Assembly: GCA_903886275.1 (NCBI GenBank)
Contig: CAISLN010000063.1
Coordinates: 1-64,000 of the forward strand
DNA: 64,000 bases
Direction: 5' to 3'
Source: an uncultured beta proteobacterium
GTDB taxonomy: Bacteria > Pseudomonadota > Gammaproteobacteria > Burkholderiales > Burkholderiaceae_C
Every line of letters begins with the position of its first letter. Position 1 is the stretch's first letter. The position numbers and the translations under genes are program-made. This document shows positions 1 to 35,469 of the stretch, piece after piece. The notes under the pieces were generated by a model that saw nothing but the letters and a program-made list of their open reading frames with translations, did no database searches and was not told the DNA's origin.

Positions 1-2865
1 TCCGTCCGAGACCGGCCCACAAACCTCTGGATGCATGCGGTAGGTGAGGCCCAAAAAGATGCCTTTGTTGGGCGGTACGGTCGCATGACCTTGCATCAGG
101 TAGTCCAGCACCGACAAGCCGCTGTCGCCGGGATGAACGCCCTGGGTGGGTTGCGGGAGTTGCATCTGGTCACCCAGCAAAACGATGTTGCGCGCGCCGC
201 AGCCCGCAGCGACCACATCGGCCAGTGAGACCTGGCTGGCCTCATCGACAAATAGATAGTCCCATTTTTTCTCCTGCTCATATCTACAGAACAGCCAAGC
301 CGTGCCACCCACAAGTTTGTGGTGGGCAGAGTCCACGTCTCTGCTATCGATAACTTGAACGCCTTCGGGCAGACCGTCTGCAGGTTGAACGACTGTCGCT
401 TGAACTTGGGTACCGCAAGCCAATGCGACTCTGTGCGCTGCCACCAGCAGATGATTGATGACGGCATGGCTATTGGATGTGATGCCGACGGATTTGCCGT
501 CTGCCAGCAAGGCAGCGATCACTTGGGCGGCCAGGGTTGTCTTGCCGGTGCCCGGAGGCCCCTGAATGACGAGATAGCTGCTGTCCATTTGGCGGACCGC
601 CGCAGTCACCGCCTCCGGTGTGACCTCGCTGACAAGGTCAGAGCCGGCTGGCATTTGCAGTAAACGCGGGGAAGTGCGGAACAACAAATCCAACAGCGCC
701 GCCGTACTGGCATCCCCCTTTGTCAATTGGTGGATGAAGCGATAGATGGCTTCCAGCTTTGGTGCGTGTTCAATTTTCTCGGACGCACACAGCGTGATTA
801 CTGGCGGGGGTGCAGGCCGATTGGCAGCTCGCGTAAAGGTGACCAGACCGGCGTCTGCATCATATTGAAAGTTGGATGCAGGCAACTCATCGGTCAGGCA
901 GGCGACGCTGGCCTTGCTATACAGCTTTGTCTCCTGGTCCGGCACAAGGTATTGGTAACGGACACTTCTGTTCACCGGCTCTGCGTGTCCTGTGAATTCA
1001 AGCAGCGCCAGGCAGTCCTGGTCGTCGAGCAGGTCCGCCTCGTCAGCCTGTTCCCGCTGGTATTTGAGCCACAGTTTGGGCAGGTCGCAACGCCAATAGA
1101 AGCCAAGCAAGTGACCCAGCAAATCTGCCACTGCCAAGCTAGATGCCTTCTTCGCCAGTGACGGCACCTCAACCCACTGACTCAGTGCCTGCCGCGCAAG
1201 TGCCTCTCTGGCCTCGCGCTCGGCACGGTTTACACTGCGCTGGGCCTCTTCTTCAGCATCAGGTCGCGCGGCCACAAAGCGCTTCGCCTGCGGCGGACGT
1301 ATGTTTTCGAGCCACAGGTGCAATAGCCGGGTTGACTCCACATCATCAAAGTTATATCGCTCGATATCGTCTAGTAACTTGCTTTTGGTAGCGTCATCCT
1401 CCGCCACGCGGTAGGCCTCATACTGAACGATGCTGTCGCCTGCATTGGCTACTTCGCCCTCGCGCTTTCCCCGGTAGTAAGCCTCCACTTTCTTAATTGA
1501 ATAGCTAGGCAGAGCCAACTGCAAGCCGCTCACTACCACGCGGTAGAGATCAACCAGACGCCCTTCGCGCAACAGCCTGTCGCGCTGCTCGGTGCGCGTG
1601 TTGTGAACGCCAGACAGCTTCTGGATGGCCGTCTTTTCATAGGGGGCGTAGTGATAGATATGGGCCGCTGGATAGGTGACAAGCCTGGCCTCTACAAAGT
1701 CCATGAAGGCTTCAAACGCAATCTTCTCTTCGTCCCGGTTGTGTGCCCAGAAAGCCTGAAATTTGAATTTGGTGGGGTCGCCACCTTCCAGATAGCCAAG
1801 GCCAAACAGATATTCCAGTCCGCCTACCACATGCGGGAAGCCTTCCATATCGAAGTACATATCGCCGGGGTCGGGCTCGGGCAGTAGCGCAAAGCCGGTT
1901 GGCTTTGGTATGGCGCCGGCGCGTGGAATGGGCGACAAATAGGCAATGCGCAGCTGCCCTTGGGCGTCGGTAGGATGCCGTTGAAGTTGGGCCTGCTGCT
2001 GGAGCTTGGCAAAGCTGCCCATTCCTTCAACCGCCTTTGTGCTACCAGCCAATGCCGCCATGGTCGTGATGCCAGCGGCCTCCAGCTTGGCAACCTGGTT
2101 GCCACGGATATTGGCCACCTGAGAGAGATGATCGACCTGCTCCCAGTGCGCGCTGCAGTGATCTTTCCAGCCGCACAGCGCGCAGCTGCCGACTGGCAAC
2201 GGGGCTGTTGCCGCAGGGGCAGACACAAAGCCCAGAAAGTTTGCCTTGGCCAAACGCACATAGTGGATGTAGTCCTGCGTTCTGAGCCTTGCCACGTTCG
2301 GCGCGCCTGGTGCAAGCCCATGCTTTTGCCGACCCCGTTCGTCGAGTGCGCCCAACACCACATGCAGGTGCTCAGGCAAAACGCCCTGTTCGGCCGCCAC
2401 CAGATCGGCGTAAAGACACAACTGAACCATGAACTTGGCCCGGTTGGATTGGGCAAGCTTGGTATCCGCCACCTCATAGTGATAGTCGCCAAGCTTCGAT
2501 TGCCCTGGTACGCGCAGCAAAAAGTCTGCATATCCAAGAAACGGCTTGTGCAGCAAGGCGGCCTGAAAAATAACTTCTGCACCGGCTTGCATCGCCGCTT
2601 GGGTGGCCTTGATTTGAGAAGGCAAGTCCTGCTTTTCCTTGTCGATTTCTACAACCTTCAGCCCGGACGCTTTGAGTTCTGCCAGATAGGCAAGCTCGTG
2701 GCGGTTGCCGTAGTCTTGCACCAGTTGTGCAGCAGCATCCATTGCTGCGCGCGGCTCATCCCAGCCACTCAGTTTTTTCAGATCGAGTGTCGTGCGATGC
2801 CTGCAGCCCAAGAACGCCACCAGATCGGATGCGGAATAAAGTGTATTTCCCCCTACTGTCTGCAT
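1..2865 (-). CDS. RecB-like nuclease fused to SF1 DNA/RNA helicase (TM0106-like), truncated by window edge
   Basis: The reading frame is open for 955 codons from an ATG at 2865 to base 1, so the C-terminus lies outside the window. GGAGAAG just upstream supports this start. The N-terminus is a RecB/Cas4-type nuclease: Asp114, the EVADTKLA motif (D134, K136) and QLCLY (Q148, Y152). C21 plus C228-x2-C231-x5-C237 fit a 4Fe-4S cluster as in Cas4/AddB. A middle RNase H-like segment contains DMYFDMEG. The C-terminal half is an Upf1/Dna2-like SF1 helicase: Walker A GPPGTGKT (K775), motif II VDEAS, motif III LLGDQMQLPQP and motif IV LTYRMHP at the edge. The predicted role is ATP-dependent nucleic-acid processing. 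It is the distal gene of a leftward cluster containing WYL, AAA and propeller-like genes, which hints at defence or repair. The family call is firm; the biological role is not. Confidence 0.85.
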   Translation of the reverse strand, partial: MQTVGGNTLYSASDLVAFLGCRHRTTLDLKKLSGWDEPRAAMDAAAQLVQDYGNRHELAYLAELKASGLKVVEIDKEKQDLPSQIKATQAAMQAGAEVIFQAALLHKPFLGYADFLLRVPGQSKLGDYHYEVADTKLAQSNRAKFMVQLCLYADLVAAEQGVLPEHLHVVLGALDERGRQKHGLAPGAPNVARLRTQDYIHYVRLAKANFLGFVSAPAATAPLPVGSCALCGWKDHCSAHWEQVDHLSQVANIRGNQVAKLEAAGITTMAALAGSTKAVEGMGSFAKLQQQAQLQRHPTDAQGQLRIAYLSPIPRAGAIPKPTGFALLPEPDPGDMYFDMEGFPHVVGGLEYLFGLGYLEGGDPTKFKFQAFWAHNRDEEKIAFEAFMDFVEARLVTYPAAHIYHYAPYEKTAIQKLSGVHNTRTEQRDRLLREGRLVDLYRVVVSGLQLALPSYSIKKVEAYYRGKREGEVANAGDSIVQYEAYRVAEDDATKSKLLDDIERYNFDDVESTRLLHLWLENIRPPQAKRFVAARPDAEEEAQRSVNRAEREAREALARQALSQWVEVPSLAKKASSLAVADLLGHLLGFYWRCDLPKLWLKYQREQADEADLLDDQDCLALLEFTGHAEPVNRSVRYQYLVPDQETKLYSKASVACLTDELPASNFQYDADAGLVTFTRAANRPAPPPVITLCASEKIEHAPKLEAIYRFIHQLTKGDASTAALLDLLFRTSPRLLQMPAGSDLVSEVTPEAVTAAVRQMDSSYLVIQGPPGTGKTTLAAQVIAALLADGKSVGITSNSHAVINHLLVAAHRVALACGTQVQATVVQPADGLPEGVQVIDSRDVDSAHHKLVGGTAWLFCRYEQEKKWDYLFVDEASQVSLADVVAAGCGARNIVLLGDQMQLPQPTQGVHPGDSGLSVLDYLMQGHATVPPNKGIFLGLTYRMHPEVCGPVSDG

Positions 2866-3038
2866 GTCTGCTTCTCCGTCACATGGATTTGAATACTTTT
2901 AATTTTCGGACAGAGGTGGCCTGTTTGGCCCCAACTGCACTCAGACAAGAGAGCTATCATGCTCCTCAATTGTGAGCTTTTGAATACTATTTTTCTGAAA
3001 TAGCTGGCTGCGATAGCTCCGCACTACCAGGTCTTCTT

Positions 3039-3737
3039 CTAAAAAGTCTTCAGCTGCTTGTGCGTAAAAACCACCTCTGTATAGCAAGCCGCAACGACAT
3101 GTGGAAGCGGGTACATGATGTGCAGTCCATCCTTGCCAAGAACCACATTGGTTTCGCCCAGTACAGAGCTCCCCGCTTCGGTCAGTATCGCTCTGCAGTC
3201 CTGTGCAATCCGGGATTTTTTATTTGCCAGCATTGCGTGCTTCAGCATGTCCTGCGCGGCGGGATTGAGCACATAGCCATGTTCGAGCTTTGTTGCGATT
3301 GCGAACATTTGGAACGGATTCAATCGCTGCCCGGACCGGGGATCGAACATCAGGCCACTGTGCGAGTCACTCGGGTAGGGTCCGCCACAGTAGATAGTGG
3401 AATCCACTTTTACAGAAAAGATCGTTGGCGTATCCAGCAAGACCTTGTAGTGGATGTCATAGAGTCCCTTGAAATAGGGCACCTCACGGGCCTCAGCCAT
3501 GAATTTATCGCATTGCCGAGCCTCCACCTTTTGCTCGCGGTCCAAGGCCGCAAGCGTCACCTCCAACGCGCGGGTTCGGTGAATCTGTGCCGGGCGCGGT
3601 ATTTTATGGATACCGCTGATGGGTGCTGCGGCAAGTGAGGCGCTGCTCAGGATGGATAGCAGTGCCATCAGGTACGCCGACTTGCAGTGTAGGAATCCAG
3701 GCGATCTGGTGCCTGTCAATGGGGATTTATTGGTCAT
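3039..3737 (-). CDS. Exported DUF3298-like protein
   Basis: A 232-residue protein with an N-terminal export signal (hydrophobic AYLMALLSILSSASLAAA, about residues 22-39, then a likely cleavage site). The mature part carries a segment of the RsiV/DUF3298 kind, with a YCGGPYPS turn followed by FDPRSGQRLNP, where family members usually have a GGAH-type motif followed by a strand and a T/SGK/RxL turn. Four cysteines remain in the mature part, so disulfides are possible. No catalytic residues can be assigned. It lies between the RecB-helicase and the double-AAA ATPase on the same strand. The start codon is preceded by ATTATTTTTAGCC, with no clear Shine-Dalgarno, and then by a long GA/CT microsatellite, so expression may depend on that tract. 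Placement in DUF3298 is by eye and moderate. Confidence 0.65.
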   Translation of the reverse strand: MTNKSPLTGTRSPGFLHCKSAYLMALLSILSSASLAAAPISGIHKIPRPAQIHRTRALEVTLAALDREQKVEARQCDKFMAEAREVPYFKGLYDIHYKVLLDTPTIFSVKVDSTIYCGGPYPSDSHSGLMFDPRSGQRLNPFQMFAIATKLEHGYVLNPAAQDMLKHAMLANKKSRIAQDCRAILTEAGSSVLGETNVVLGKDGLHIMYPLPHVVAACYTEVVFTHKQLKTF

Positions 3738-3747
3738 GGCTAAAAAT

Positions 3748-3795
<48 letters not shown>

Positions 3796-3822
3796 CAGGA
3801 TCATGGGTTTAGTGGGCTGTTA

Positions 3823-6090
3823 TCAAAGGAACCCAGCGCGTTGCTTGGCATGGGGTTCCCGCATGGCGTGTTCGCGTTCGAGTTCGCTGATCCAGGTGCT
3901 CACGTCGAAGTGCTCGTTCAAAACCGACTCTTGCCGGCGAATGGTTGCGAAGTCACCCGGCGCGAGTTGATCCAGCTTTGCGAGTCGCTGTGCAATGTCT
4001 GTTTGAACTTCTGCAATGGGATTGCCCATGGCGAAGCGGGCAAACATTCGGGTGCGCTTCGGGAAGTCCAGGGGCAAAAACCGGATCTTGAAGGTAAAGC
4101 GCCGCAAAGCGGCCGCATCAATGTCTTCCATCAAATTGGTCGCGCAGATGAAAACGCCCTTGTAGGACTCCATTTGCTGCAGCATTTCATTGACCTGGGT
4201 GACTTCCCAGGAAGCCCTTGCCAGCCTTCTGTCCCGCAAGAAGCTGTCACCTTCGTCCAGCAAAAGCACCGCGTTTTCGTCCTCGCCCTGGCGAAACATG
4301 GCCGCGATGGCTTTTTCCGTCTCGCCTATCCATTTCGAACTCAGTTCACTGACCCGCTTGGCCAGCAAGGGACGATTCAGGGTTTGCGAAATATGCCTGG
4401 CCAGTGATGTCTTTCCCGTGCCGGGGACACCGTGAAAAGCCAGCGTTGCGCCCTGCGTATGCTGTAGCGCAAGCAATATTTTTGGCAAGGGCGCACTGGC
4501 TTCGAGGCAAAGGGCATTGATATCCCAGCCCACAGATTCCTCGTAACTTGGAACACGGAACTCGCCCATGGCGCGCTGTCTGGCACGCAGGGCCGAATGG
4601 AGTGGGCCTTCGGGGGAATCGGTGGCGCCATCACAGCAGAGCTTGGCAAATTTTGCCGCCATGCGAATTTGTGCTGGCGAGTTGGATGTACCGTTGGCGA
4701 TGCTGTATAGAAGTCCCGCGTCCGGGCCTACCGGCTCCAGCAGCTTCTCAACCATCCGCATCCGTGCATGGGCCCGTGGTGCCTTCAGTTCGAGGTGGTA
4801 TACAAAGCGGTTCAATACCGACGCACTCAAACCTTGCGTGGTGTTGCCTATCCAAATAGTGGGGATTCGCACCCGTTCTAGCGCCTCGATCAGCAATTGC
4901 AGGTCATCTAAGGCAACTTCCTCAAGGTGCTCAACAACCAATGCGGATGGGCCGTGGGTCTTGAGCAGTGCCTCGGCCCTGTAGATGTTTCTGATGCGCT
5001 CGTCGAAATCAATAGTGGCTAGACCTGAGCGTACGAGGTTCTGGACTTGGAAGCCCTTCAGCCCCGCCTCTTGGAGCAATAGTTTGGCCAGCTCTGTTTT
5101 CCCAGAACCACTGGGGCCGTGAATCAGAATGTGAACCCCGCCTTCTGACGCTTCATGCGCCTTTCCAAGGCAATGAACCGTCCAAGCGATCTCCTGTTGC
5201 AGCTGCGAAAAATCACCTGGGTCGAGCGTTGCGCCAGCCAGCGGGACCAGCATGCGTTCGCGCAGTTCCTCTAGGGAGTCAGCCTTCGAATGGAAAAATT
5301 GGTTTCCAACCGCTCCGAGCTGAACCAGCTCATCCTGGCTGCTGGGCAATAGCTTCAGCTGCACCAGGCCGCTCTTGACCAGCGTCGCACCAGGAGCCAG
5401 CGCCGCTTGAAGTTCTCTAATGGTGCTGCAGGTCATGGCGGCCAGTATGTCCCACATTGCCTGCGAACTAGGACTGGATAAGTGCCGGAGAAAGTAATTG
5501 AAGTCCAACCGGGTGCCCGACAGGGCTGCCACCTCCAGAATCCTCAGCTCTGTGCGGTCCAGCGCATAGAGCTTGCGGACATATTCCAGGTTCTCCGGCT
5601 GCCCCTTTGTAGCGAGCTCTGGCAGCTCTAGCGCGGCAAGGGACAGCTCCAACACGCGCCGCATGATTGCGGGCTGCTGATACCAATGCATGAGGGCCTG
5701 GTCGCGGCAGACGTTCTGCGCTGCTCCATGCCCCTGGGCACACAGGTCCAACAGAGTCGGCAAGTCGCAGCGTGGGGGCACAGGGTCCCCGGGGTAACAG
5801 CGGTAAATCTCTGCCCAGATTGCATTGCGCATCACCGCTGGCCAGAATATCCCACAGGTAATCAAGCAAAAGATCCTGTGGTCTTCCTTGATGACCTGTC
5901 CCAAAATGAAATCGGAGCTAAGGCAAGCGCGAATCGCCAGACGCAGAGCCGCAATGCTCACTATTTTTGACTGGGCAAAGTGGGATAGAAGTTGTTCTGA
6001 CTCGTTCACTATGGCCTCGATGGGTAAGTTCTGAATGATGCGAGCGTAAGCACGCGTAGCGACAATAGGTATCGCTAGGAATAAATCCAT
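3823..6090 (-). CDS. Tandem AAA+ ATPase, first module degenerate
   Basis: A 755-residue protein with two AAA+ modules after a helical N-terminal region of about 300 residues with no recognised domain. Module 1 has Walker A GPSGSGKT (325-332), but its Walker B position reads ALVVEHLEE without the expected Asp-Glu pair, suggesting nucleotide binding without hydrolysis. Module 2 is canonical: Walker A GVPGTGKT (554-561), Walker B LLLDE (609-613), sensor-1 Asn at 652 and an arginine-finger-like ALRRF (661-665). The SSKWIGETEK segment resembles the substrate-pore region of classic AAA unfoldases (katanin/Vps4/FtsH-like). It probably works as a ring-forming remodeller. It sits downstream of the WYL-regulator gene (88-bp gap) and upstream of the exported protein and nuclease-helicase genes. 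The partner and substrate cannot be told from sequence. Confidence 0.85.
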   Translation of the reverse strand: MDLFLAIPIVATRAYARIIQNLPIEAIVNESEQLLSHFAQSKIVSIAALRLAIRACLSSDFILGQVIKEDHRIFCLITCGIFWPAVMRNAIWAEIYRCYPGDPVPPRCDLPTLLDLCAQGHGAAQNVCRDQALMHWYQQPAIMRRVLELSLAALELPELATKGQPENLEYVRKLYALDRTELRILEVAALSGTRLDFNYFLRHLSSPSSQAMWDILAAMTCSTIRELQAALAPGATLVKSGLVQLKLLPSSQDELVQLGAVGNQFFHSKADSLEELRERMLVPLAGATLDPGDFSQLQQEIAWTVHCLGKAHEASEGGVHILIHGPSGSGKTELAKLLLQEAGLKGFQVQNLVRSGLATIDFDERIRNIYRAEALLKTHGPSALVVEHLEEVALDDLQLLIEALERVRIPTIWIGNTTQGLSASVLNRFVYHLELKAPRAHARMRMVEKLLEPVGPDAGLLYSIANGTSNSPAQIRMAAKFAKLCCDGATDSPEGPLHSALRARQRAMGEFRVPSYEESVGWDINALCLEASAPLPKILLALQHTQGATLAFHGVPGTGKTSLARHISQTLNRPLLAKRVSELSSKWIGETEKAIAAMFRQGEDENAVLLLDEGDSFLRDRRLARASWEVTQVNEMLQQMESYKGVFICATNLMEDIDAAALRRFTFKIRFLPLDFPKRTRMFARFAMGNPIAEVQTDIAQRLAKLDQLAPGDFATIRRQESVLNEHFDVSTWISELEREHAMREPHAKQRAGFL

Positions 6091-6178
6091 TGCGATCTAT
6101 TGGATGCAGCTTTGCGAGCAGATTGAGCCCAGCGCCCTTCGCTCAGCCGCCGCCCCGATCCGCGTTCCCAGCGACCGA

Positions 6179-7285
6179 TCAGGTACTTGCGGCCGTGGCA
6201 GGTGAAATGTCTTTTCGATAGTGTGCAGCGGCGGCCAGCAGATGCTCGCCAACGAACTTGCGCAGGCTGGGCGGGCTGACGACCTCGACCCAACCGGCAT
6301 GGCTCCAAAGAAACGGAGGCAACTGCACAGTGTACGGAACGGTTACCTTCAGGGTATGGCGTCCGTCGCCATCCGGCTCTTCAGAAATTACCTGAACGGA
6401 ACCGTTCACGCCGCAAATTGGCCGCTCGTTAAAGTGAAACAAGGCTTCCTTGCTGACTTTGAGCACCATCTCTATCGGGCTTTCCTCTTCTTGCTTGACG
6501 TGCGCCAACTGGTGCTGGCTCTCAATGTACTGGTCGAGCTGGATATCGGGGCGCGCGAAGGTTCGCAATCCAACTTCAGTCGCCGACTTCACGCGGTGCA
6601 AGGGAATGTGGGTCGGCACATCGCTGAAGCCCTTGCAGTTGATCATATAAAGGGTCCCGTCTTTGGCCACCAAACCCAGCACGGCCCGCTCGGTGCCAGC
6701 CGGACCGTCAGCAACGGGCACTCCTTGTCGGGTTTTGTAGGTCAGCGCCACCTTGTGCCCGCTTTCAATAGCCGAGAGAACAGCAGCCAGCACATTGGAA
6801 TCGATGGTCGCGTGTTTGCGGGCGATGCCATCGGGAACAATCCGTACGCACGACTTCAAAGCTTCTTCACCCTTGTTCAAAAGCGCATGGAGTGCGGCAT
6901 CGTCCACGTTATTTGCGTCATAGGCCTGTCCCAAACCCTGCATGACGTTCTTGGACCAAAGCAGGTTCAAAGCGATCTTGCTGTCCATGAAATACTTCAG
7001 CAGCTGGTTTTCCAGCAAATAATATTTGTCGTAGCGTGGAGAGGGGTCCGTCGCCTCCTTACCGGCAACCGCTTGGGGCGTTTTGTAGTATACGGTTCCC
7101 AAAATTCCCAGTTCCTGCAAATCCTCAATCTGTTTACGAATGTGCTTGTTTTTCGAAGCGTCACCCAGCGCAACATGGTTCGATGGATCCAAATAGTATT
7201 TGTCGCGGATCTTGGTGCTTGCAAGGGCTTGATCCATCGACTTTGGAAGAATCTTGATCATCTTGATCAGCGTATCGACTTTCAT
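6179..7285 (-). CDS. WYL-domain transcriptional regulator
   Basis: A 368-residue protein. Residues about 20-70 look like a winged helix (the segment ending in HIRKQIEDLQELGIL resembles the recognition region of DeoR/WYL regulators). Residues about 175-255 form a WYL domain: VALTYKTRQG, then GTLYMINC and IPLHRVKSA, the usual Sm-like fold with the conserved central motif and basic HR pair. The rest fits a WCX-type C-terminal extension. WYL proteins commonly sense nucleotides or nucleic acid and often regulate defence loci. The ATG at 7285 has AAGGGA seven bases upstream. It lies between the propeller-like gene and the AAA ATPase gene on the same strand, so it is a good candidate regulator of this cluster. 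Confidence 0.85.
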   Translation of the reverse strand: MKVDTLIKMIKILPKSMDQALASTKIRDKYYLDPSNHVALGDASKNKHIRKQIEDLQELGILGTVYYKTPQAVAGKEATDPSPRYDKYYLLENQLLKYFMDSKIALNLLWSKNVMQGLGQAYDANNVDDAALHALLNKGEEALKSCVRIVPDGIARKHATIDSNVLAAVLSAIESGHKVALTYKTRQGVPVADGPAGTERAVLGLVAKDGTLYMINCKGFSDVPTHIPLHRVKSATEVGLRTFARPDIQLDQYIESQHQLAHVKQEEESPIEMVLKVSKEALFHFNERPICGVNGSVQVISEEPDGDGRHTLKVTVPYTVQLPPFLWSHAGWVEVVSPPSLRKFVGEHLLAAAAHYRKDISPATAAST

Positions 7286-7348
7286 ATGGCGTCCCTTTTG
7301 TTGGATAACTTGTTCTACGTTCTGTCTGTCCCTGCTGCATAGGTGCCG

Positions 7349-8515
7349 TCATTCACGGCGCAGCGGCATCCCGGCCTGTGCGTCACGCAGCCTGTCGGCA
7401 GCAATCCATTCGTAGGCGCTGCGCCCATTGCAGTCGGTACCGATGGCGTATAGGCCCGAAACTTCACCGCCTACGCAATACAAGGCATTGACCGCTGTCA
7501 GGGATTGCAGAGCCACCTGGCGAAAGGGATCGGAATATGGATCAGCTCCTTCGCTAGAGCGCGCCTTGGCAGGGATAGGGGCGCTCACAGCCATGCCCTT
7601 GGTGCCCAGTGCCAATACCAAAAAGCTGTCGCAAAACACCATGCCGGTGATGGCCGCCAATACCTTCCCATGCTTGTTTGGGTTGCGGCGCTGCCGCTTG
7701 GACCACTCTTGGAGTGTGGCAGTCACCAGTTGCAGTTCGCTGGGTTCGCCGGATTCACCTTCTACATCGCTGACGAGAAAGTCATCGCCCAACATGAGAT
7801 GGCAATACACATCGTCCACCAAATCCTGTGTGCTCGGCTCCCGAATGCCACCCCAGCAGCCGATCTCTCGCAAATCGTCTTTACCGACGAGGGATAGAAA
7901 GCACGACGTGATGTCGTGGTTGTATCCCTGGGAAAGTAGCGCATAGACCCCCGGGCCCTCAGCTGCGCGCCGTATGGTTTCGTAGGTGGTGTGGCTTGCT
8001 AGCGGGAACTTTTGTACGCCGGCCGCATCCAAAGCAGGCTCCAGCGGATAGACCAAAATCCACTTGGGCTGCAAGATGTTGTCAATCGCCACGAGTTCGC
8101 GACCGCGCACATACAGGGCATCAATCGCTTTGCCCCGCCGCCCCAAACCTGGCGGTAGCGCCACAGGAAGCCAGTCCGGTTGGCGGCCCGGTTGCCGCAA
8201 CCAAAGCGCCTCCCCATGTTCACTATGACCGCCGGCCAACAGCATGCCTCGGTGTACCAGCACGGCATGTGCCATACAGCCTTTGGGCAAGGTCGCAGGT
8301 GGTCTTGCAGGTTCGAACCAGGGCGCGTCGGGAAGCAGACGGTAATGCCCGATTCGCTTGCCTTGTTGGTCCAACACCGCAAATTCACTGCCATCCGTGG
8401 AAAACCACCGCCTGGCGTGACTCGCCCCTGGTGCCAGCGCAAGCGCCACCACCGCGTTGCCGGCAACGCGGCAAAGCCAATCCAAGCCATCCACTGGCAA
8501 AAACGCATACCCCAT
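7349..8515 (-). CDS. Predicted beta-propeller-like protein, function unknown
   Basis: The frame is open from 8632, but the ATG at 8515 (MGYAFLPVDGL) is preferred because the upstream 39 residues look like untranslated leader. This gives 388 residues. The protein is strand-rich, with recurring blocks such as VLDQQGKRIGHYRLLP, VLVHRGMLLAGG and ALYVRGRELVAIDN, spaced like blades of a WD/Kelch-type propeller. There is no signal peptide, transmembrane segment or catalytic motif, so it is probably cytosolic. It is the first gene of the leftward group that includes WYL and AAA genes. AAA proteins paired with beta-propellers occur in some bacterial NTP-dependent conflict systems, which makes the pairing notable. 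The fold call rests on visual periodicity only; I do not recognise the family. Confidence 0.6.
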   Translation of the reverse strand: MGYAFLPVDGLDWLCRVAGNAVVALALAPGASHARRWFSTDGSEFAVLDQQGKRIGHYRLLPDAPWFEPARPPATLPKGCMAHAVLVHRGMLLAGGHSEHGEALWLRQPGRQPDWLPVALPPGLGRRGKAIDALYVRGRELVAIDNILQPKWILVYPLEPALDAAGVQKFPLASHTTYETIRRAAEGPGVYALLSQGYNHDITSCFLSLVGKDDLREIGCWGGIREPSTQDLVDDVYCHLMLGDDFLVSDVEGESGEPSELQLVTATLQEWSKRQRRNPNKHGKVLAAITGMVFCDSFLVLALGTKGMAVSAPIPAKARSSEGADPYSDPFRQVALQSLTAVNALYCVGGEVSGLYAIGTDCNGRSAYEWIAADRLRDAQAGMPLRRE

Positions 8516-8946
8516 AGCCAAACCCCCAGAACTTGTTCTCAAACGAATGCCGACCCAGGGTGCCGCAGCATTCACTGCGCATGGGCTATGGCGGTTTACA
8601 AATTTATAGGAATAGGGGCATTCACACCCCATTGCAGCGTCATCGGCTACGCAATCGACGCGTTATTCAACTATCCAAAGAGTGTCTAGACATCAAGCGA
8701 CAAAACCGATCCTTAGCTGGAGAGCCTTGCCCCATTGCTGCAAGCCAGCGGCCAGTCTGTGAGGATTCCGGGGCATCTTACTCTTGTATTCAATAGCTTT
8801 TGGAGAACCAAGCTGGCGCACACAGCAATAGATACAAGCTTCTACCAAGGCGAATGCTCTGAACACCGGTTTTATCGCTTGCGCAGGTCAAGATAGGCGA
8901 AAGCAAGTCAGAACATGCCCCAATCACCAAAAAAGGAAGGCAACCC
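8516..8946. promoter_or_regulatory. Divergent intergenic region between the propeller-like operon and the membrane/DnaQ-like pair
   Basis: About 430 bp without a credible gene. It must hold the promoters for the leftward propeller-WYL-AAA group and for the rightward 8947-11183 pair. One copy of the dispersed octamer CTATCCAA is at 8671-8678. A good ribosome-binding site (AAGGAAGG) lies just before 8947. I see no convincing -35/-10 pair or strong inverted repeat. Confidence 0.6.
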
Positions 8947-9702
8947 ATGCGCCCGGATATTGAAGGCTACACCCGCTTTAAAAATATGTGGACAGGTCGC
9001 ACCACCTACTACCGTGGCGGCAGTGGAAATCCCAACGCCGATGCCTTGGCAGCGTTGTTCACACTGGATACCGCGAGTGGTCGGCTGGTCTCCATGGTCA
9101 TCCTGACCCCCTTCGTTACGATCTTCTCGGCTCTGTGGGGTTCAGACCTCATGGGCTCTCGGGGTGGCGTCATTTTTGGCGTGCTGGGCCTTGTCGCCGG
9201 CCTGCTGCTCGGCTATGTTCTGGCACAACGCTTCACCCAGTTCTTGGGCCTTGCCATTGTCGGGTCGATTGTTTGGCTTGTGGTGGTCGTAGTCTGGTCT
9301 ATGCTGGTTCAATTCTGGTATGCCGACGATCCCACCTACCCTTCTGCCAAACTGATACGCCAAGATGTCATGGGCGAGGTGCTGAATTGCAACAAGGTTC
9401 AGTCAGATTGGAAGGGCATGCGCCTTTTCGAACTCAACCACGACCGTCTGGATACCCTGCATTACATCTGCCAACAGCCCAACTTGGTGCGGCTGGAACA
9501 GCAGTTGAATGCTGCCTTTGCAGGCTTGGACCAGGTAGACAAGAAGAAACGCGAAGGCGTGCAAAGCACACTCAATACCTTTAGACCTGACCTCTTCCAT
9601 TGCAAGTCGCCAACAGACAAAGAGCGGTGCATTCGGGAGGCGTATGTCTCGTTGTTCGAGATCATCCACACCGCGGATCCGGCCTGGCAAACACACCGAT
9701 AG
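8947..9702 (+). CDS. Three-helix membrane protein of unknown function
   Basis: A 251-residue protein preceded by AAGGAAGG. Three hydrophobic helices can be read: about residues 46-64 (VSMVILTPFVTIFSALWG), 73-95 (a Gly-rich GVLGLVAGLLLGYVL helix) and 98-125 (GLAIVGSIVWLVVVVVWSML). The soluble C-terminal half of about 125 residues is charged and has four cysteines (in LNCNK, HYICQQ, FHCKS and RCIRE). No known domain is recognised. The stop is 11 bp before the start of the DnaQ-like gene, so the two are almost certainly cotranscribed. It diverges from the propeller/WYL/AAA group. A membrane protein paired with a nuclease-like protein is a common theme in conflict systems, but here that is inference. 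Confidence 0.75.
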   Translation: MRPDIEGYTRFKNMWTGRTTYYRGGSGNPNADALAALFTLDTASGRLVSMVILTPFVTIFSALWGSDLMGSRGGVIFGVLGLVAGLLLGYVLAQRFTQFLGLAIVGSIVWLVVVVVWSMLVQFWYADDPTYPSAKLIRQDVMGEVLNCNKVQSDWKGMRLFELNHDRLDTLHYICQQPNLVRLEQQLNAAFAGLDQVDKKKREGVQSTLNTFRPDLFHCKSPTDKERCIREAYVSLFEIIHTADPAWQTHR

Positions 9703-9713
9703 GAACAAGCGAC

Positions 9714-11183
9714 ATGGACAACAATTGGATAGCCGCGCCATCAAACAGCGCCTCTGAGAGCGATCTCTTCCTGCGCTTTCAGGCAGAGTGGTCCGCTATG
9801 GATAAACCCTATGCGGTACTGGATCTGGAAGTGACAGATCGGTTTGATGACCAAGATGAAATCACGGCCGTGCACGCCTTGCAAGTCACACCCGATGGCG
9901 ACATCGTGGCGCAACTCGATATCCTGGTAAGGACCAGGAGGTCCCCACCGCCATGGCCAGAGCAGGAGGAGCGCACTGACGCGCCGGTTCAAGCCCAAAA
10001 GCCCGTCTGGGTTGCGCTGGCACTGCTCCGACTAAGGGTATTCCTGGGAGACCGCGATGTCTTCATCCACAACGCCTCACGTGATATGCCATTCATAGAG
10101 CAGATTGCAACGCGATTCAAATTGAAATTTTCCAACCGCGTGTTCGATATACGGCCCATGGCCCAAATGACCTGGCCCGGCCAACTTTACGCCCAAAGAA
10201 TACTGGGGGACTACCTCGAACTCAGCCGCGAAGGCCAATACCAGGGAACGGCGGATGACGTAAAGGCAAGTTTGGATATTTTGCTGACCGTGCGCCAATT
10301 GGCACAAACCCGCCATGCACAACGTATAGAGTCGGCGCTCAGCGACCAAGCCAAAGCCAAATGGAATGCACCCCGGTTCACACCGGCCCTATGCCCGATC
10401 TGCCAAACGCTGCATGCCTTCTATCCAAGCATACCTTTTGTGAGTGAAGTGCTGGAGTTGGACGAGGATGGCGTTGAAATGCCTGAATTAATTTTCTTTG
10501 ATGACCACGTTGAAATAGATTGCTTTTTACTTTGCGCAAAGGACTGGGCAGCGATGAGTGGCGGCTTCACCGTCGTACACGTGGATGTCACCGACGGTCT
10601 CGATCCAAACGCGCAGATACTGGCTATCACCGCGCTGTCGGTCAATGGGGTCGGACAGGTGATCGAAAAATTCGAGGCGCTCGTAACATCCGCTACCCTT
10701 GCTCCACAGTGGCTGTTAGACAAATACAAACTGAGCCAAGCGGCCTTCAGGGAACGCTCCTTGGATTTGAAGCAGGCGTTGGAAGCGATCCTGGCATTTG
10801 CGGGTGAAAGCACTGCATTCATCTACAACGAGCCCCAGCATCTCACCTTCGTCGAAGAAGCATTGATGGATTGCAGTATCGCAAGTTCCATGCAATGGAT
10901 AAACGTCTCAGGGATTGCGCAGTTTATATTTCCTGGTGAGCTGACATGGGGCCTTCAAACCTTGGTCGGCTACTTAGGCATTCAGCATCCAGAAGCGGCC
11001 TTGTCACTCGACGCGCTACTGACGCTCAAGATACTGCTTGCGACCCGAGACGAAGCCAGGGGATATCACTATCGACGCATCACAACGACCGCACCGCGTT
11101 TAGAGAACGGCAGCCTCAAAGAGGTCCGGAACGGCCAAGTCTTTTGTCGCTTTTGCCAGAGGCACCATCCAATCGTCATTTGA
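9714..11183 (+). CDS. Double DnaQ-like (DEDD) exonuclease-fold protein with two CxxCQxxH motifs
   Basis: The ATG at 9714 follows AGGAA by eight bases and yields 489 residues; the longer frame from 9600 overlaps the previous gene and is not used. Residues about 30-200 look like a DEDD 3'-5' exonuclease: DLE (D37, E39), IHNASRDMPF (N120, D124) and GTADDVKASL (D182). The usual His of HxAxxD is Gln177. Residues about 285-445 repeat the fold: HVDVTD (D291 but Thr293), IYNEPQHLTF (His376 where Asp is expected) and HPEAALSLDA. Each copy is followed by a cysteine motif: CPICQTLH (227-234) and CRFCQRHH (478-485). The second copy is probably inactive and the first altered. Possible roles are nucleic-acid binding or trimming. 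It forms a pair with the membrane protein at 8947. Confidence 0.7.
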   Translation: MDNNWIAAPSNSASESDLFLRFQAEWSAMDKPYAVLDLEVTDRFDDQDEITAVHALQVTPDGDIVAQLDILVRTRRSPPPWPEQEERTDAPVQAQKPVWVALALLRLRVFLGDRDVFIHNASRDMPFIEQIATRFKLKFSNRVFDIRPMAQMTWPGQLYAQRILGDYLELSREGQYQGTADDVKASLDILLTVRQLAQTRHAQRIESALSDQAKAKWNAPRFTPALCPICQTLHAFYPSIPFVSEVLELDEDGVEMPELIFFDDHVEIDCFLLCAKDWAAMSGGFTVVHVDVTDGLDPNAQILAITALSVNGVGQVIEKFEALVTSATLAPQWLLDKYKLSQAAFRERSLDLKQALEAILAFAGESTAFIYNEPQHLTFVEEALMDCSIASSMQWINVSGIAQFIFPGELTWGLQTLVGYLGIQHPEAALSLDALLTLKILLATRDEARGYHYRRITTTAPRLENGSLKEVRNGQVFCRFCQRHHPIVI

Positions 11184-11264
11184 TTTTTCCACAAACTACT
11201 TTTGGCTGAAGTTGAACGGACCCCCCAGATACCGGACTGTCATCTGCGCCCCGAGCATGCCGCC

Positions 11265-12032
11265 CTATTTCAAGAGCAGCGGCTTCAAGAGCATCCATAG
11301 GGCCGTACAAAGAACCATCCACGCAAACGCAACGCGCATGCGCTTTTCCGGCAGGCGATGGGCAAGGGCAACGCCAGCGGACACCGTCAACAGGCCACCC
11401 AAGGCCATGGGAAGTCCCAGGCTCCAATCGACCCGTTGCGCACTGCTGTAGGTCATCAAGGCGATGATGGAACTCGGCGCCACCAGCGCCAGCGAAAGAC
11501 TTTGCGCCACGGTCTGGCGTTGTCCGAACCAGGCGCCAAAGAGCGGCGTGGCCACCAGTCCACCGCCCACGCCCAGCAGACCCATGCTGGCACCGCCCAG
11601 CACGCCGACCAGCGGCATACAGCGCAGGTCCATTGGCTTGCGTGCGGAGCTGTCGCCCGGTCTGTGCACCAGCATGCGAAGCGACAAGACCAACAGGAAG
11701 AGGCTAAACAGCATGCGCATCAGGTCAGGGGCCAGCCGCGTGGCCACCTGCGCCACCAGCCAGGTCGTGCTGCAGGCCAGTGCGCCAATCTGCAGCGCGG
11801 TCTTCCAGCCCACCGGATGGCGTTGGTTGTAGCGCCACCAGGCGATCAGCAAATTGGGCACCATCATGACCAGGGCCGTTCCTTGGGCCACGGCCTGGTC
11901 CAGACTGAAACCCAGGACCAGCAAAGGGATGGCGATGATGCCACCCCCAATGCCAAACAGCCCACCCAAAAACCCCAGACCGGCCCCCAGAATGAGCAGC
12001 TCTAAAAGTTCGGGAAGGTTAAAAAAAGACAT
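11265..12032 (-). CDS. TSUP-family membrane transporter (TauE/SafE-like)
   Basis: The ATG at 12032 starts MSFFNLPELLEL; the longer frame to 12188 runs back into etfA and is rejected. The 255-residue product is almost entirely hydrophobic, with two related halves. Each half begins with a glycine-rich signature: FLGGLFGIGGGIIAIPLL near residue 20, and GASMGLLGVGGGLVATPLF in the second half. This is typical of the sulfite/sulfonate/organosulfur exporter family TSUP (about eight helices). Substrate cannot be assigned. It is 49 bp downstream of etfA on the same strand and may be read through from that operon, though a functional link is not obvious. The stop is 81 bp from the convergent DnaQ-like gene. 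Confidence 0.85.
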   Translation of the reverse strand: MSFFNLPELLELLILGAGLGFLGGLFGIGGGIIAIPLLVLGFSLDQAVAQGTALVMMVPNLLIAWWRYNQRHPVGWKTALQIGALACSTTWLVAQVATRLAPDLMRMLFSLFLLVLSLRMLVHRPGDSSARKPMDLRCMPLVGVLGGASMGLLGVGGGLVATPLFGAWFGQRQTVAQSLSLALVAPSSIIALMTYSSAQRVDWSLGLPMALGGLLTVSAGVALAHRLPEKRMRVAFAWMVLCTALWMLLKPLLLK

Positions 12033-12081
12033 GGGCAAGCGGCAGTGCAAAGGCGTCGAGTGTACGCAAGCCAGCCAGCCC

Positions 12082-32064: not shown

Positions 32065-35000
32065 TCAGCGACTAAACAGGGTCCCTCCGATGTCGGGATT
32101 CTTTAGGCCCGGTAGCGTGAGTGATTGATTCGTTGACGGTGCCACGGCCATAGACACCGCCGTCTGACTGCCGTGGCTGTCAAACTGTTTCATCACATCG
32201 ACCATTGCGGCTACTGCCGCAAGTGTTGGAATAGTTGGTTGCACTGGATTGGTCGCGGCGTTTATGGTCGGAATGGCCATGGCATTGGACGTGTCGCTTG
32301 GGTAGTTAAAAGCAGTCATGGCTTGCGCCATGCTGCTTACACGGTCGGTCAAATTATTTTTGGCGTCCGCTGAAGTGAGAGTGGTACCTTGCGTCAATAC
32401 GGGCAGAGAAATGGTTTGCAGGGTGGGAGCGCTCTCGGCTGCCATCTGCAGCTCTGGCGCCATGTTGCCATTCAATGCCGCAATGGCGGCGTCAAGCGTT
32501 CCGGCCTGGGCCTGGGCCCCACCCTTGTCGGCCGCAAACCAAACGTCCGCCGCTGCATGGGTGGCACCGGCGGTTGTTTCATAACTCGCCACCAAGCCCA
32601 ACAGGTTTCCATTGTCTTTGTCGGTACCCACTGCCGCATTGAGATTGAGTTTTTTTATACCAAGCGAGTCGAGCGTACGCAGTTCACCCACACCGGTGAG
32701 ACCATCCGAGTTGCCGTCCACCCACACTTTCAGTGTGTCCCAAATCGCATCCGATTTGTCCACCACATTGTCTTGGTTGGTGTCATATGTCCGTAGCACC
32801 GTGTAGCCATCGTGGGCAGCCTGGCCGTTGGCCAATTTGGTTGCAGAACCAAACAACTCGGAGCCGTCATTGACCACGCCATCACTGTTGCGATCCAGCA
32901 CAAGCAAACCATCATCGTGGCTCACCCAGCCGGTGTTGATGTTCTTCCCGTCAGCCAATAAGTCAAACTTCACACCGTCGGCAATGCTCAGGGTTTTCAC
33001 CCCGTCGCCATTCAGATCAAGGACGATGGGAGTCACCATGCTTAGTTTGGGAATGAGCGATGGCGCGACACTGGCCAACTGCTGGGGCGTCAATGCTTTG
33101 ACTTGTGCAGGGACTAGCGACTGGAGCTGCTCACCGGTCAGCGCCCCAATTTGTGCGGGCTTCAATGCGGCGACTTGCTTGGGCGTCAGAGCCGCGATTT
33201 TGTCAACGCTGAGTGCGGCAATCCGGGCGGTGGTCAGGCCCGCCACAGCAGCAGCATTGATCTCCGATAAATGTGTGCTATCCAATGCGGCAATCTGGGC
33301 GTCGGTAAGGGCTGCGATCTGGGTGGACTTGAACGCTGCCATTTGGGCAGGCGACAGCTCTGCCAAATCGGCCACGTCAATCGCCTGCACCTGCGGGGAA
33401 CTCAAGGCACCCAGGGCCGCTGGGCTGAGAGCGCCAATCTGGGTATTGGTGAGTGCGGTGATCCGGCTTGCAGCCAAACCAGGCATCTGCGCGGCAGTCA
33501 ACCCGCTGATCGCAGCGTCAGAAATCAACTGGAGCTGAGGGTCAGTCAGCGCCGCAAATTGTGCGGGCCTCAATGCGCCGACTTGCTTGGGCGTCAAAGC
33601 CGCGATTTTGTCAGCGCCGAGTCCTCCAATCTGGGCCGCAGTCAGGCCCACCACAGCCGCAGCACTGATCGCCGAAAATTGTGCGCTGTCCAGCCCGGCG
33701 ATCTGGGCGTCGGTAAGGGCCGCGATCTGGGTGGACTTGAACGCCGCCATTTGGGTAGGCGACAGCTCTGCCAAATCGGCCACGTCAATCGCCTGCACCT
33801 GCAGGGAACTCAAGGCACCCAGGGCTGCTGTGCTGAGAGCGCCAATCTGGGTATTGGTAAGTGCGGTGATCCGGCTTGCGCCCAAACCAGGCATCTGCGC
33901 GGCAGTCAACCCGCTGATCGCAGCGTCGGAAATCAACCGGAGCTGAGGGTCAGTCAGCAGCGCCAATTGTGCGGGCCTCAATGCGCCGACTTGTTTGGGC
34001 TTCAAAGCCGCGATTTTGTCAGCGCCGAGTCCGGTAATATGGGCCTCGGTCAGGCCCACCATAGCAGCAGCACTGATCGCCGAAAATTGTGTGGGGTCCA
34101 ATGCGGCGATCTGGCCGGCGCTGAGGGCCGCGATCTGGGTGGACTTGAACGCCGCCATTTGGGCAGGCGACAGCTCTGCCAAATCGGCCGCGTCAATTGC
34201 CTTCAGCTGCAAGGAACTCAAGGCACCCAGGGCCGCTGTGCTGAGAGCGCCAATCTGGGTGTTGGTGAGTGCGGTGATCTGGCTTGCAGCCAAACCAGGC
34301 ATCTGCGCTGCAGTCAACCCGCTGATCGCAGTTTCAGAAATCGACTGGAGCTGAATGTCAGTCAGCACCGCCAATTGTGCGGGCCTCAATGCGCTGACTT
34401 GCTTGGGCGTCAAAGCCGCTGTTTTGTCAACGTCGAGTCCGGTAATCTGGGCCGCAGTCAGGCCCACCACAGCAGCAGCACTGATCGCCGAAAATTGTGT
34501 GCTGTCCAATGCGGCAATCTGGGCGTCGCTAAGGGCCGCGATCTGGTTGGCCTTGAAAGCCGCCATTTGGGCAGGCGACAGCTCTGCCAAATCGGCCGCG
34601 TCAATCGCCTGCACCTGCAGGGAACTCAAGGCACCCAGGGCCGCTGTGCTGAGAGCGCCAATCTGGGTATTGGTAAGTGCGGTGATCCGGCTTGCGCCCA
34701 AACCAGGCATCTGCGCGGCAGTCAACCCGCTGATCGCAGTTTCAGAAATCAACCGGAGCTGAGGGTCAGTCAGCGCCGCAAATTGTGCAGGACTCAATGC
34801 GCCGACTTGCTTGGGCTTCAAAGCCGCGATTTTGTCAGCGCCGAGTCCCGCAATCTGGGCCGCAGTCAGGCCCACCACAGCAGCAGCACTGATCGCCGAA
34901 AATTGTGTGGGGTCCAATGCGGCGATCTGGCTGGCGCTAAGGGCCGCGATCTGGGTGGCCTTGAACGCCGCCATTTGGGCAGGCGACAGCTCTGCCAAGT

Positions 35001-35469
35001 AGGTCGCGTCAATCGCCTGCACCTGCAGGGCACTCAAGGCACCCAGGGCCGCTGGGCTGAGGGCGCCAATCTGGGAGTTGGTGAGTACGGTGATCTGGCT
35101 TGCAGCCAAACCAGGCATCTGCGCGGCAGTCAACCCGCTGATCGCAGCGTCGGAAATCGACTGGAGCTGGGTCTCAGTCAGCAGCGCCAATTGTGCAGGC
35201 TTCAATGCGCCGACTTGTTTGGGCGTCAAAGCCGCTGTTTTGTCAACGCCGAGTCCGGTAATCTGGGCCGCAGTCAGGCCCACCACAGCAGCAGCGCTGA
35301 TCGCCGAAAATTGTGTGCTGTCCAATGCGGCAATCTGGGCGTCGGTAAGGGCCGCGATCTGGGTGGCCTTGAACGCCGCCATTTGGGCAGGCACCAATGC
35401 GGCGAGCTGATCGAGGGTCAAAGCCGCAATTTGCGCTGGCGAAAGTGAGTTAATGATCAATGTCGGCAA
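32065..35469 (-). CDS. Giant octapeptide-repeat protein with calcium-binding C-terminus
   Basis: A 1134-residue protein. The start is TTG at 35469, with GGGAG eight bases upstream; no earlier ATG fits. Residues about 9-800 consist almost wholly of an 8-residue repeat, consensus IAALTxxQ. These are organised into five near-identical 136-residue super-repeats of 17 octads plus a partial sixth. Residues about 830-1000 carry VLDLNGDGVKTL, LLVLDRNSDGVVNDGSELFG, TYDTNQDNVVDKSD and VWVDGNSDGLTG, EF-hand/RTX-like calcium loops typical of type I-secreted surface proteins. There is no N-terminal signal peptide, consistent with type I export, but no transporter gene is nearby. It is a probable surface adhesin or matrix protein. 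Confidence 0.8.
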   Translation of the reverse strand: MPTLIINSLSPAQIAALTLDQLAALVPAQMAAFKATQIAALTDAQIAALDSTQFSAISAAAVVGLTAAQITGLGVDKTAALTPKQVGALKPAQLALLTETQLQSISDAAISGLTAAQMPGLAASQITVLTNSQIGALSPAALGALSALQVQAIDATYLAELSPAQMAAFKATQIAALSASQIAALDPTQFSAISAAAVVGLTAAQIAGLGADKIAALKPKQVGALSPAQFAALTDPQLRLISETAISGLTAAQMPGLGASRITALTNTQIGALSTAALGALSSLQVQAIDAADLAELSPAQMAAFKANQIAALSDAQIAALDSTQFSAISAAAVVGLTAAQITGLDVDKTAALTPKQVSALRPAQLAVLTDIQLQSISETAISGLTAAQMPGLAASQITALTNTQIGALSTAALGALSSLQLKAIDAADLAELSPAQMAAFKSTQIAALSAGQIAALDPTQFSAISAAAMVGLTEAHITGLGADKIAALKPKQVGALRPAQLALLTDPQLRLISDAAISGLTAAQMPGLGASRITALTNTQIGALSTAALGALSSLQVQAIDVADLAELSPTQMAAFKSTQIAALTDAQIAGLDSAQFSAISAAAVVGLTAAQIGGLGADKIAALTPKQVGALRPAQFAALTDPQLQLISDAAISGLTAAQMPGLAASRITALTNTQIGALSPAALGALSSPQVQAIDVADLAELSPAQMAAFKSTQIAALTDAQIAALDSTHLSEINAAAVAGLTTARIAALSVDKIAALTPKQVAALKPAQIGALTGEQLQSLVPAQVKALTPQQLASVAPSLIPKLSMVTPIVLDLNGDGVKTLSIADGVKFDLLADGKNINTGWVSHDDGLLVLDRNSDGVVNDGSELFGSATKLANGQAAHDGYTVLRTYDTNQDNVVDKSDAIWDTLKVWVDGNSDGLTGVGELRTLDSLGIKKLNLNAAVGTDKDNGNLLGLVASYETTAGATHAAADVWFAADKGGAQAQAGTLDAAIAALNGNMAPELQMAAESAPTLQTISLPVLTQGTTLTSADAKNNLTDRVSSMAQAMTAFNYPSDTSNAMAIPTINAATNPVQPTIPTLAAVAAMVDVMKQFDSHGSQTAVSMAVAPSTNQSLTLPGLKNPDIGGTLFSR
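33070..35382 (-). repeat. Tandem 408-bp super-repeats (5 full plus a partial)
   Basis: The codon for the MAAFK motif recurs at 35382, 34974, 34566, 34158, 33750 and 33342, exactly 408 bp apart, each unit encoding 17 octapeptides. Copies are highly similar at the DNA level, pointing to recent amplification or homogenisation by recombination. The sixth unit decays after about 270 bp. Confidence 0.93.

What the first reader, a model, noticed from the sequence alone, without database searches (positions are those of the whole stretch)
1..8515. Candidate undescribed system: propeller-like protein, WYL regulator, tandem AAA, secreted protein, RecB-nuclease/helicase
Five same-strand genes combine a regulator typical of defence loci (WYL), an AAA remodeller with one dead module, a propeller-like protein and a Fe-S nuclease-helicase. 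AAA plus beta-propeller pairings are described in NTP-dependent conflict systems, but I do not know this five-gene set. Gaps: 63 bp, 88 bp, then 85 bp containing the GA tract, then 173 bp.
Basis: partly seen in the sequence, partly recalled or inferred. Interest (0 to 1): 0.8.

Follow-up and report, generated by a model that had tools for sequence, protein, structure and literature searches.

The report
WYL–Cdc48-like AAA–nuclease island genes
A stretch of acquired DNA in an unnamed bacterium carries a gene switch, a protein-unfolding motor with one silenced engine and a DNA-cutting helicase; switches and motors of these kinds recur together elsewhere with ever-changing nucleases, which looks like a modular, still unnamed anti-invader arrangement, while two of the five reported genes are probably local extras.

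Summary
The five same-strand genes and gaps are real. C is a Cdc48-like tandem AAA whose first module lost its Walker-B glutamate (7 of 7 in its clade); the second is intact. A models as a beta-propeller. E is a TIGR03491 Fe-S nuclease with RNase_H_2 and SF1 helicase; the contig edge cuts it, it continues on contig C19, and a sixth, GIY-YIG-type gene follows. The stretch is low in GC and missing from the matching regions of three congeners.
The five are not a conserved set. What recurs is a WYL gene plus a tandem AAA plus a changing nuclease: WYL is annotated within 8 kb of C homologues at 10 of 16 annotated plasmid loci (none in four 50-kb controls). But B's own profile detects only 5 of those 10 WYLs, and no other locus seen joins B, dead-D1 C and E. 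A (only its own genome of 399) and D (3 of 299, own included) are unlinked. Nine opened copies of C's commoner relatives have no WYL nearby.
Best reading: a WYL-controlled unfoldase-plus-nuclease conflict module; defence is inferred, not shown. Nine searches of the paper library found no description of it.

The parts
7349..8515 (-). Gene A: beta-propeller protein, 388 aa, no sequence family
6179..7285 (-). Gene B: WYL/WCX-type transcription regulator, 368 aa
   Evidence: WCX 34.8 bits over cut-off 23.9, WYL 17.4 under cut-off 21.8; PADLOC WYL 1.5e-18; PafBC match; 52 other homologues
3823..6090 (-). Gene C: Cdc48-like tandem AAA ATPase; first module lacks the Walker-B glutamate and the first finger arginine, second module intact; likely true start GTG at 6009
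3752..3794 (.). (GA)21.5 microsatellite, ends 14 bp upstream of the D start codon
   Evidence: TRF; only place matching 24 bases of GA repeat in the assembly
3039..3737 (-). Gene D: small protein with a signal-peptide-like N-terminus (by eye); probable passenger
   Evidence: sub-threshold PdaC match; 3 of 299 family genomes, own included; no A, B, C or E homologue in the two other loci opened
1..2865 (-). Gene E: TM0106-family RecB-like Fe-S nuclease + RNase_H_2 + SF1 helicase; 3' part lies on contig C19 (L003:82-1038)
   Evidence: TIGR03491 265.7 bits over cut-off 97.45; RNase_H_2 and AAA_11; AAA_12 on C19; motif residues conserved; 81-bp contig overlap

Best explanation
A horizontally acquired conflict (probably anti-phage or anti-plasmid) island built on a recurring pairing, a WYL regulator (B) plus a Cdc48-like unfoldase (C), to which a nuclease module is attached; here the module is E, a Fe-S RecB-family nuclease, RNase_H_2 nuclease and SF1 helicase in one chain, with a GIY-YIG nuclease-like gene F behind it. 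Proposed mechanism: (1) B keeps the genes low and releases them on binding a nucleotide-like ligand made during infection (inferred from WYL biology, PMC4012209 passages). (2) C forms a stacked hexamer; the D1 ring binds but does not hydrolyse ATP, as an assembly or gating ring, and the D2 ring threads a client protein (module state shown by sequence; hexamer and role inferred). (3) The client is either an invader protein or a complex that keeps the nuclease inactive; A, where present, is an added docking adaptor (inferred). (4) E unwinds and cuts DNA or RNA (motif residues shown; activity inferred). D is most likely a passenger.
For: WYL is annotated within 8 kb at 10 of 16 annotated plasmid loci of C homologues covering 55-78% of C (18 of the 20 listed rows opened, 2 of those unannotated), directly next to it in 7; 0 WYL among 189 features of four 50-kb stretches of four of these plasmids. 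From B: 10 distinct loci of its subfamily hold a tandem AAA in 4, a DUF2779 or AddAB-like nuclease in 5, a GIY-YIG gene in 2; three of the ten are contigs under 7 kb. A TM0106 nuclease (398 aa, no helicase) lies with WYL+AAA in Sphingobium, a full one with AAA in Pseudomonas luteola and with WYL in Haematobacter. D1 loss in 7 of 7 of C's clade, while 37 of 39 others aligned keep the acidic pair; E's nuclease motifs conserved in 6 of 6 homologues, helicase motifs in 5 of 5. No blastn match of 150 bp or more for window 1-12075 or C19 1-3687 in the regions taken from three congeners; GC 0.566 and 0.467 against 0.622 and 0.641. No minus-strand terminator-like site in the four gaps.
Against: B's profile detects the WYL gene in only 5 of the 10 plasmid loci (H6, H7, H8, H9, H17), and all 15 plasmid C homologues aligned lie outside the dead-D1 clade, so the recurrence is at the level of domain types, not of B and C orthologues. 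No locus outside the window was seen with B, dead-D1 C and E together; E was in none of the 10 B-side loci. The nearest genomic relative of C (G233, 43% identity) has no WYL on its 13.4-kb contig. 6 of 16 annotated plasmid loci have no WYL, and 9 of 9 opened copies of commoner relatives of C have none. The A cluster (100% match) spans 27 contigs up to 300,664 bp, longer than any listed for a B homologue (230,091), so A probably occurs without B. Gaps of 63-173 bp, and 1 promoter-like site against 4.4 in shuffles, do not prove one operon. Nothing here tests defence. No relative of B or A was found in viral contigs.
Confidence: 0.45

Rival explanations
1. Defence-island pile-up: B+C are at most a small regulator-chaperone unit, and E, F, A and D are independent genes that landed beside it; there is no joint mechanism.
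For: E stands without annotated WYL or AAA in 3 of 4 opened plasmid loci, A and D are unlinked elsewhere, gaps are up to 173 bp, and the nuclease partner differs between loci.
Against: All six genes run in one direction, and WYL-AAA neighbourhoods stand above the plasmid control, with a TM0106 nuclease among the partners in Sphingobium.
Confidence: 0.33
2. An unfoldase-protease device: C feeds clients to an M41-type zinc peptidase encoded elsewhere; nucleases are side partners.
For: M41-type peptidase genes stand beside WYL genes of B's subfamily in L009 and L024, and a protein with an AAA part and a weak M41 match (24.5 bits, HESGH by eye) lies 2.4 kb from the nearest C relative in G233.
Against: No peptidase family matched the island genes above cut-off; among the 10 B-side loci nuclease genes (5) are commoner than M41 (2).
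Confidence: 0.1
3. A stripped relative of the published ADP-ribosylglycohydrolase (ARG)-centred systems, in which a WYL factor, phosphatases, chaperones and restriction-type nucleases counter phage ADP-ribosylation.
For: WYL+AAA+AddAB-like loci in L022, Fuscovulum and Leisingera carry an ARG gene, and 5'-nucleotidase genes lie near TM0106 genes in Sphingobium and Caballeronia, as the paper describes for its systems (PMC9503650 section 3.8, read).
Against: No ARG or phosphatase family was listed for the window genes tested (best 25 families per protein); the section read names vWA, SseB and TY chaperones, not tandem AAA.
Confidence: 0.1

Closest known systems
TM0106 family RecB-like nuclease (TIGR03491) fused to RNase_H_2 and SF1 helicase
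   Same: E scores far over the family cut-off and shares motifs with six plasmid homologues, five of them full-length
   Different: No paper with TM0106, nuclease and phage was found in the library; the window copy lacks the first Cys of the C-terminal cluster that the six homologues have
Published ARG-centred anti-ADP-ribosylation systems (PMC9503650)
   Same: WYL regulator, chaperone-like component, restriction-type nucleases and helicases as changing parts
   Different: No ARG or phosphatase found here; the chaperone-like part is a tandem AAA
IetAS
   Same: IetA is the best PADLOC and NCBIfam profile for C, over its second module
   Different: C scores 104 against the curated 510; two AAA modules; no protease family matched above cut-off in the island genes
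MoxR-vWA NTP-dependent conflict systems (PMC7159879, passages)
   Same: AAA ATPase and beta-propeller as shared parts
   Different: No MoxR, no vWA; here the propeller is a separate, unlinked gene
BREX with WYL regulator BrxR (PMC9122589, search listing only)
   Same: WYL regulator in a defence locus
   Different: No PglZ or BrxC match listed among the seven window proteins tested
PADLOC candidate PDC-M27
   Same: In Rhodoferax antarcticus a tandem AAA, DUF2779, WYL run stands directly before a PDC-M27A gene
   Different: No PDC-M27 match in the seven window proteins tested

Membership tests
TM0106 family nuclease (TIGR03491) | Score above the curated cut-off | tested here: met
   265.7 against 97.45 bits
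TM0106 family nuclease (TIGR03491) | D...(D/E)xK core, QxxxY, and one N-terminal plus three C-terminal Cys (motif names recalled) | tested here: met
   Shared by E and six homologues
WYL/WCX regulators | WYL (PF13280) and WCX (PF25583) domains above cut-off | tested here: inconclusive
   WCX above, WYL below its cut-off; PADLOC WYL 1.5e-18
Cdc48/p97-type tandem AAA | Two AAA modules of the classical clade | tested here: met
Cdc48/p97-type tandem AAA | Both modules keep the residues for ATP hydrolysis | tested here: not met
   First module lacks the Walker-B glutamate and the first finger arginine in 7 of 7 of the clade
Beta-propeller fold (gene A) | Propeller topology | tested here: met
IetAS | IetA equivalog score | tested here: not met
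   104.3 against 510 bits
MoxR-vWA conflict systems | MoxR ATPase and vWA protein | tested here: not met
   Neither listed in Pfam scans of seven window proteins and the two pieces on C19
ARG-centred systems | ADP-ribosylglycohydrolase domain (PF03747) | tested here: not met
   Not listed in the same scans
BREX | PglZ and BrxC | tested here: not met
   No such profile listed for seven window proteins; gene F and the C19 part of E were not scanned with PADLOC
Mokosh | MkoA-type helicase over its whole length with its partner genes (recalled) | tested here: inconclusive
   E matches MkoA locally, 55 bits, best stretch 672-808 of 955 residues; partners not searched apart

The most novel reading that the evidence does not exclude
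WYL switch plus Cdc48-like unfoldase is a chassis that has not been described as a system: it is reused with interchangeable partners (TM0106 nuclease-helicase, DUF2779, AddAB-like, PLD-SNF2/PDC-M27, Sir2, M41 peptidase, GIY-YIG), the unfoldase licensing the effector, and the window holds a derived branch in which the first ATPase ring has become a fixed nucleotide-bound gate and a propeller has been added as adaptor.
Probability: 0.25. Interest if true: 0.75.

Novelty: new variant of a known kind. Interest (0 to 1): 0.5.

Why it matters
If the WYL+unfoldase pairing really licenses different nucleases, it would be a common control layer for many so far separate bacterial defence genes, and would give a bacterial setting in which to ask what a Cdc48-like motor does for immunity. 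A clade with a dead first ring, beside relatives with two live rings (37 of 39 aligned keep the first module's acidic pair), gives a ready natural comparison.

Tried and rejected
Five-gene system: rejected as a conserved unit; A, D and E do not travel together with B and C. MoxR-vWA, IetAS, BREX: defining parts missing (membership table). PADLOC also gave partial matches of E to MkoA (1.1e-15), PDC-S37 (9.4e-14) and DruK (8.2e-8); not followed. Viral origin: no viral-contig relative of B or A; in phages C matches 43 records, one over residues 215-720 at 29.4% and the other 7 listed rows over 21-30% of C. Plasmid carriage: no match for A, D or F; B has 3 weak ones, 28.6-29.1% over 59-60%. Propeller against the 536-aa protein that stands beside B or C elsewhere: hhalign probability 0.15 on a 0-100 scale, so unrelated as far as seen. 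Island ends by repeats: only 10-base matches, and the shuffle control failed, so nothing is claimed. Promoter-like sites 1 against 4.4 in shuffles, terminator-like sites 17 against 9.0: uninformative. The N-terminal part of C (before residue 289) was barely tested by the fold comparison.

Empty site: not shown. The two flanking core genes lie 17-19 kb apart in G007, G001, G018 and G408 and about 118 kb apart in G033, facing away from each other, the reverse of what the contig join here implies; the other five of ten genomes have them far apart, on different contigs or without a strong match.

Rows dropped or not opened: H19 and H20 (Variovorax, same match as H18) not opened; H11 and H15 unannotated. 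H6's edge-cut plasmid helicase was not counted among nuclease or helicase neighbours. Methylomonas carries one more WYL gene outside both its locus and its control stretch. Five weaker rows (60-87 bits) were left out of the 10 B-side loci; two of them (L025, L026) have a tandem AAA next to the WYL, three (L027-L029) have none. Nine copies of C's wider family were opened, well-scoring ones or on long contigs, out of 220 matching genomes; G078's contig has the length of Diaphorobacter H4. One search used residues 1-500 of C; searches scored only the best 8000 or so candidates. One search scored 2 candidates a genome, so copies are undercounted. One search aligned 40 of 52 other B homologues, 13 of 29 C homologues. 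One search aligned 15 plasmid C homologues of the 18 opened.

Papers: PMC7159879, PMC4012209, PMC12839542 passages only; PMC9503650 passages and section 3.8 whole; PMC9122589 and others search listing only. Searches gave no description of a WYL+tandem-AAA+nuclease system; preprints and most subscription papers are not in that library.
Full report
Observation. One search shows the five minus-strand ORFs as described: A 7349-8515, B 6179-7285, C 3823-6090, D 3039-3737 and E from 2865 to the window edge. The gaps of 63, 88, 85 and 173 bp are right, with the proviso that C's homologues P0063-P0068 begin at the equivalent of a GTG at 6009. Base 1 is the end of contig C63. An identical 81-bp overlap joins it to C19, where E runs on to L003:1038 (AAA_12 helicase half), and a sixth gene with a LEM-3-like GIY-YIG domain follows (L003:1086-2666 from a likely ATG).

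Island. Window 1-12075 and C19 1-3687 have no blastn match of 150 bp or more in the regions taken from three same-genus genomes, whereas the flanks do. GC is 0.566 (window 1-8515) and 0.467 (C19 1-3680) against 0.622 and 0.641 outside. A was in none of 60 relatives. The flanking core genes are differently turned in the relatives, so a rearrangement accompanied the gain, or the contig join is not as inferred; a clean empty site was not shown.

Who travels with whom. From C: the plasmid search listed 20 of 736 records, their matches covering 55-78% of C; I opened 18; 16 are annotated; 10 of the 16 have a WYL gene within 8 kb, directly next to the AAA gene in 7. B's own profile detects 5 of those 10 WYL proteins, so the others are only distantly related WYL regulators. 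Named nuclease or helicase genes lie nearby in 11 of 16 (H5, H8, H9, H10, H12, H13, H14, H16, H17, H18, H21). The control, four 50-kb stretches of four of these plasmids with 189 features, has no WYL gene, though one control stretch does carry nuclease genes, so the nuclease count is the weaker part. From B: 10 distinct loci of its subfamily hold a tandem AAA in 4, a DUF2779 or AddAB-like nuclease in 5 and a GIY-YIG gene in 2; three of these contigs are under 7 kb. From E: of four opened loci one has WYL. A and D: none in the 33 loci; A in 1 of 399 genomes, its own, D in 3 of 299, its own included.

A caution against a simple story: members of C's wider family match in 220 of 399 family genomes, and in 9 of 9 opened copies no WYL gene was detected in the 20-kb stretch. 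So the WYL link belongs to some accessory versions, of which the window's is a derived one. The nearest genomic relative of C (G233) has no WYL on its 13.4-kb contig, but a relative of the 536-aa protein seen beside WYL in Caenimonas, a protein with an AAA part and a weak M41 match, and a DEDDh-type exonuclease.

Mechanism. Shown: module state of C, conserved motif residues of E, modelled fold of A, accessory location, recurrence of WYL+tandem AAA with nucleases. Inferred: repression by B, ring assembly, client threading, licensing of E, any role of A and F, and defence itself. The (GA)21.5 tract, the only match to 24 bases of GA repeat in the assembly, ends 14 bp before D's start codon and may alter D's expression by length change; untested.

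Novelty. Nine paper searches found no description of this WYL+tandem-AAA+nuclease grouping; the closest account is the ARG-centred systems of PMC9503650, with which some related loci overlap. I therefore file it as a new variant of a known kind, WYL-regulated modular conflict islands, not as a new kind.

Noticed in passing
window 9714-11183 (+): Protein with two DEDDh exonuclease-like halves beyond the upstream end of A; a shorter relative (74 bits) lies about 5.5 kb from the nearest genomic relative of C in G233 (L127:3293-4048), so it may belong to the island.
   Followed up: partly
window 33137-35392: 5.5 copies of a 408-bp tandem repeat, 90% matches, inside a 1134-aa minus-strand ORF.
   Followed up: no
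window 3752-3794: The only match to 24 bases of GA repeat in the 5.19-Mb assembly, 14 bp before gene D's start codon: a possible phase-variation tract.
   Followed up: partly
L128-L136: Tandem AAA ATPases of C's wider family match in 220 of 399 family genomes; the one such copy that was aligned (L032, Diaphorobacter, same record length as G078's contig) has two intact modules and 35% identity to C. Their function is not known to me.
   Followed up: partly
L025:11419-14126: Two Cas2-like short ORFs (by eye) near a WYL+tandem AAA pair in G374.
   Followed up: no
L048: A distant tandem AAA relative with a degenerate first module stands directly before contractile phage-tail-type genes on a Rhodococcus plasmid.
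   Followed up: no
L009:8190-9395, L024:1424-2929: M41-type peptidase proteins beside WYL genes of B's subfamily; possible proteolytic partners of the AAA.
   Followed up: partly
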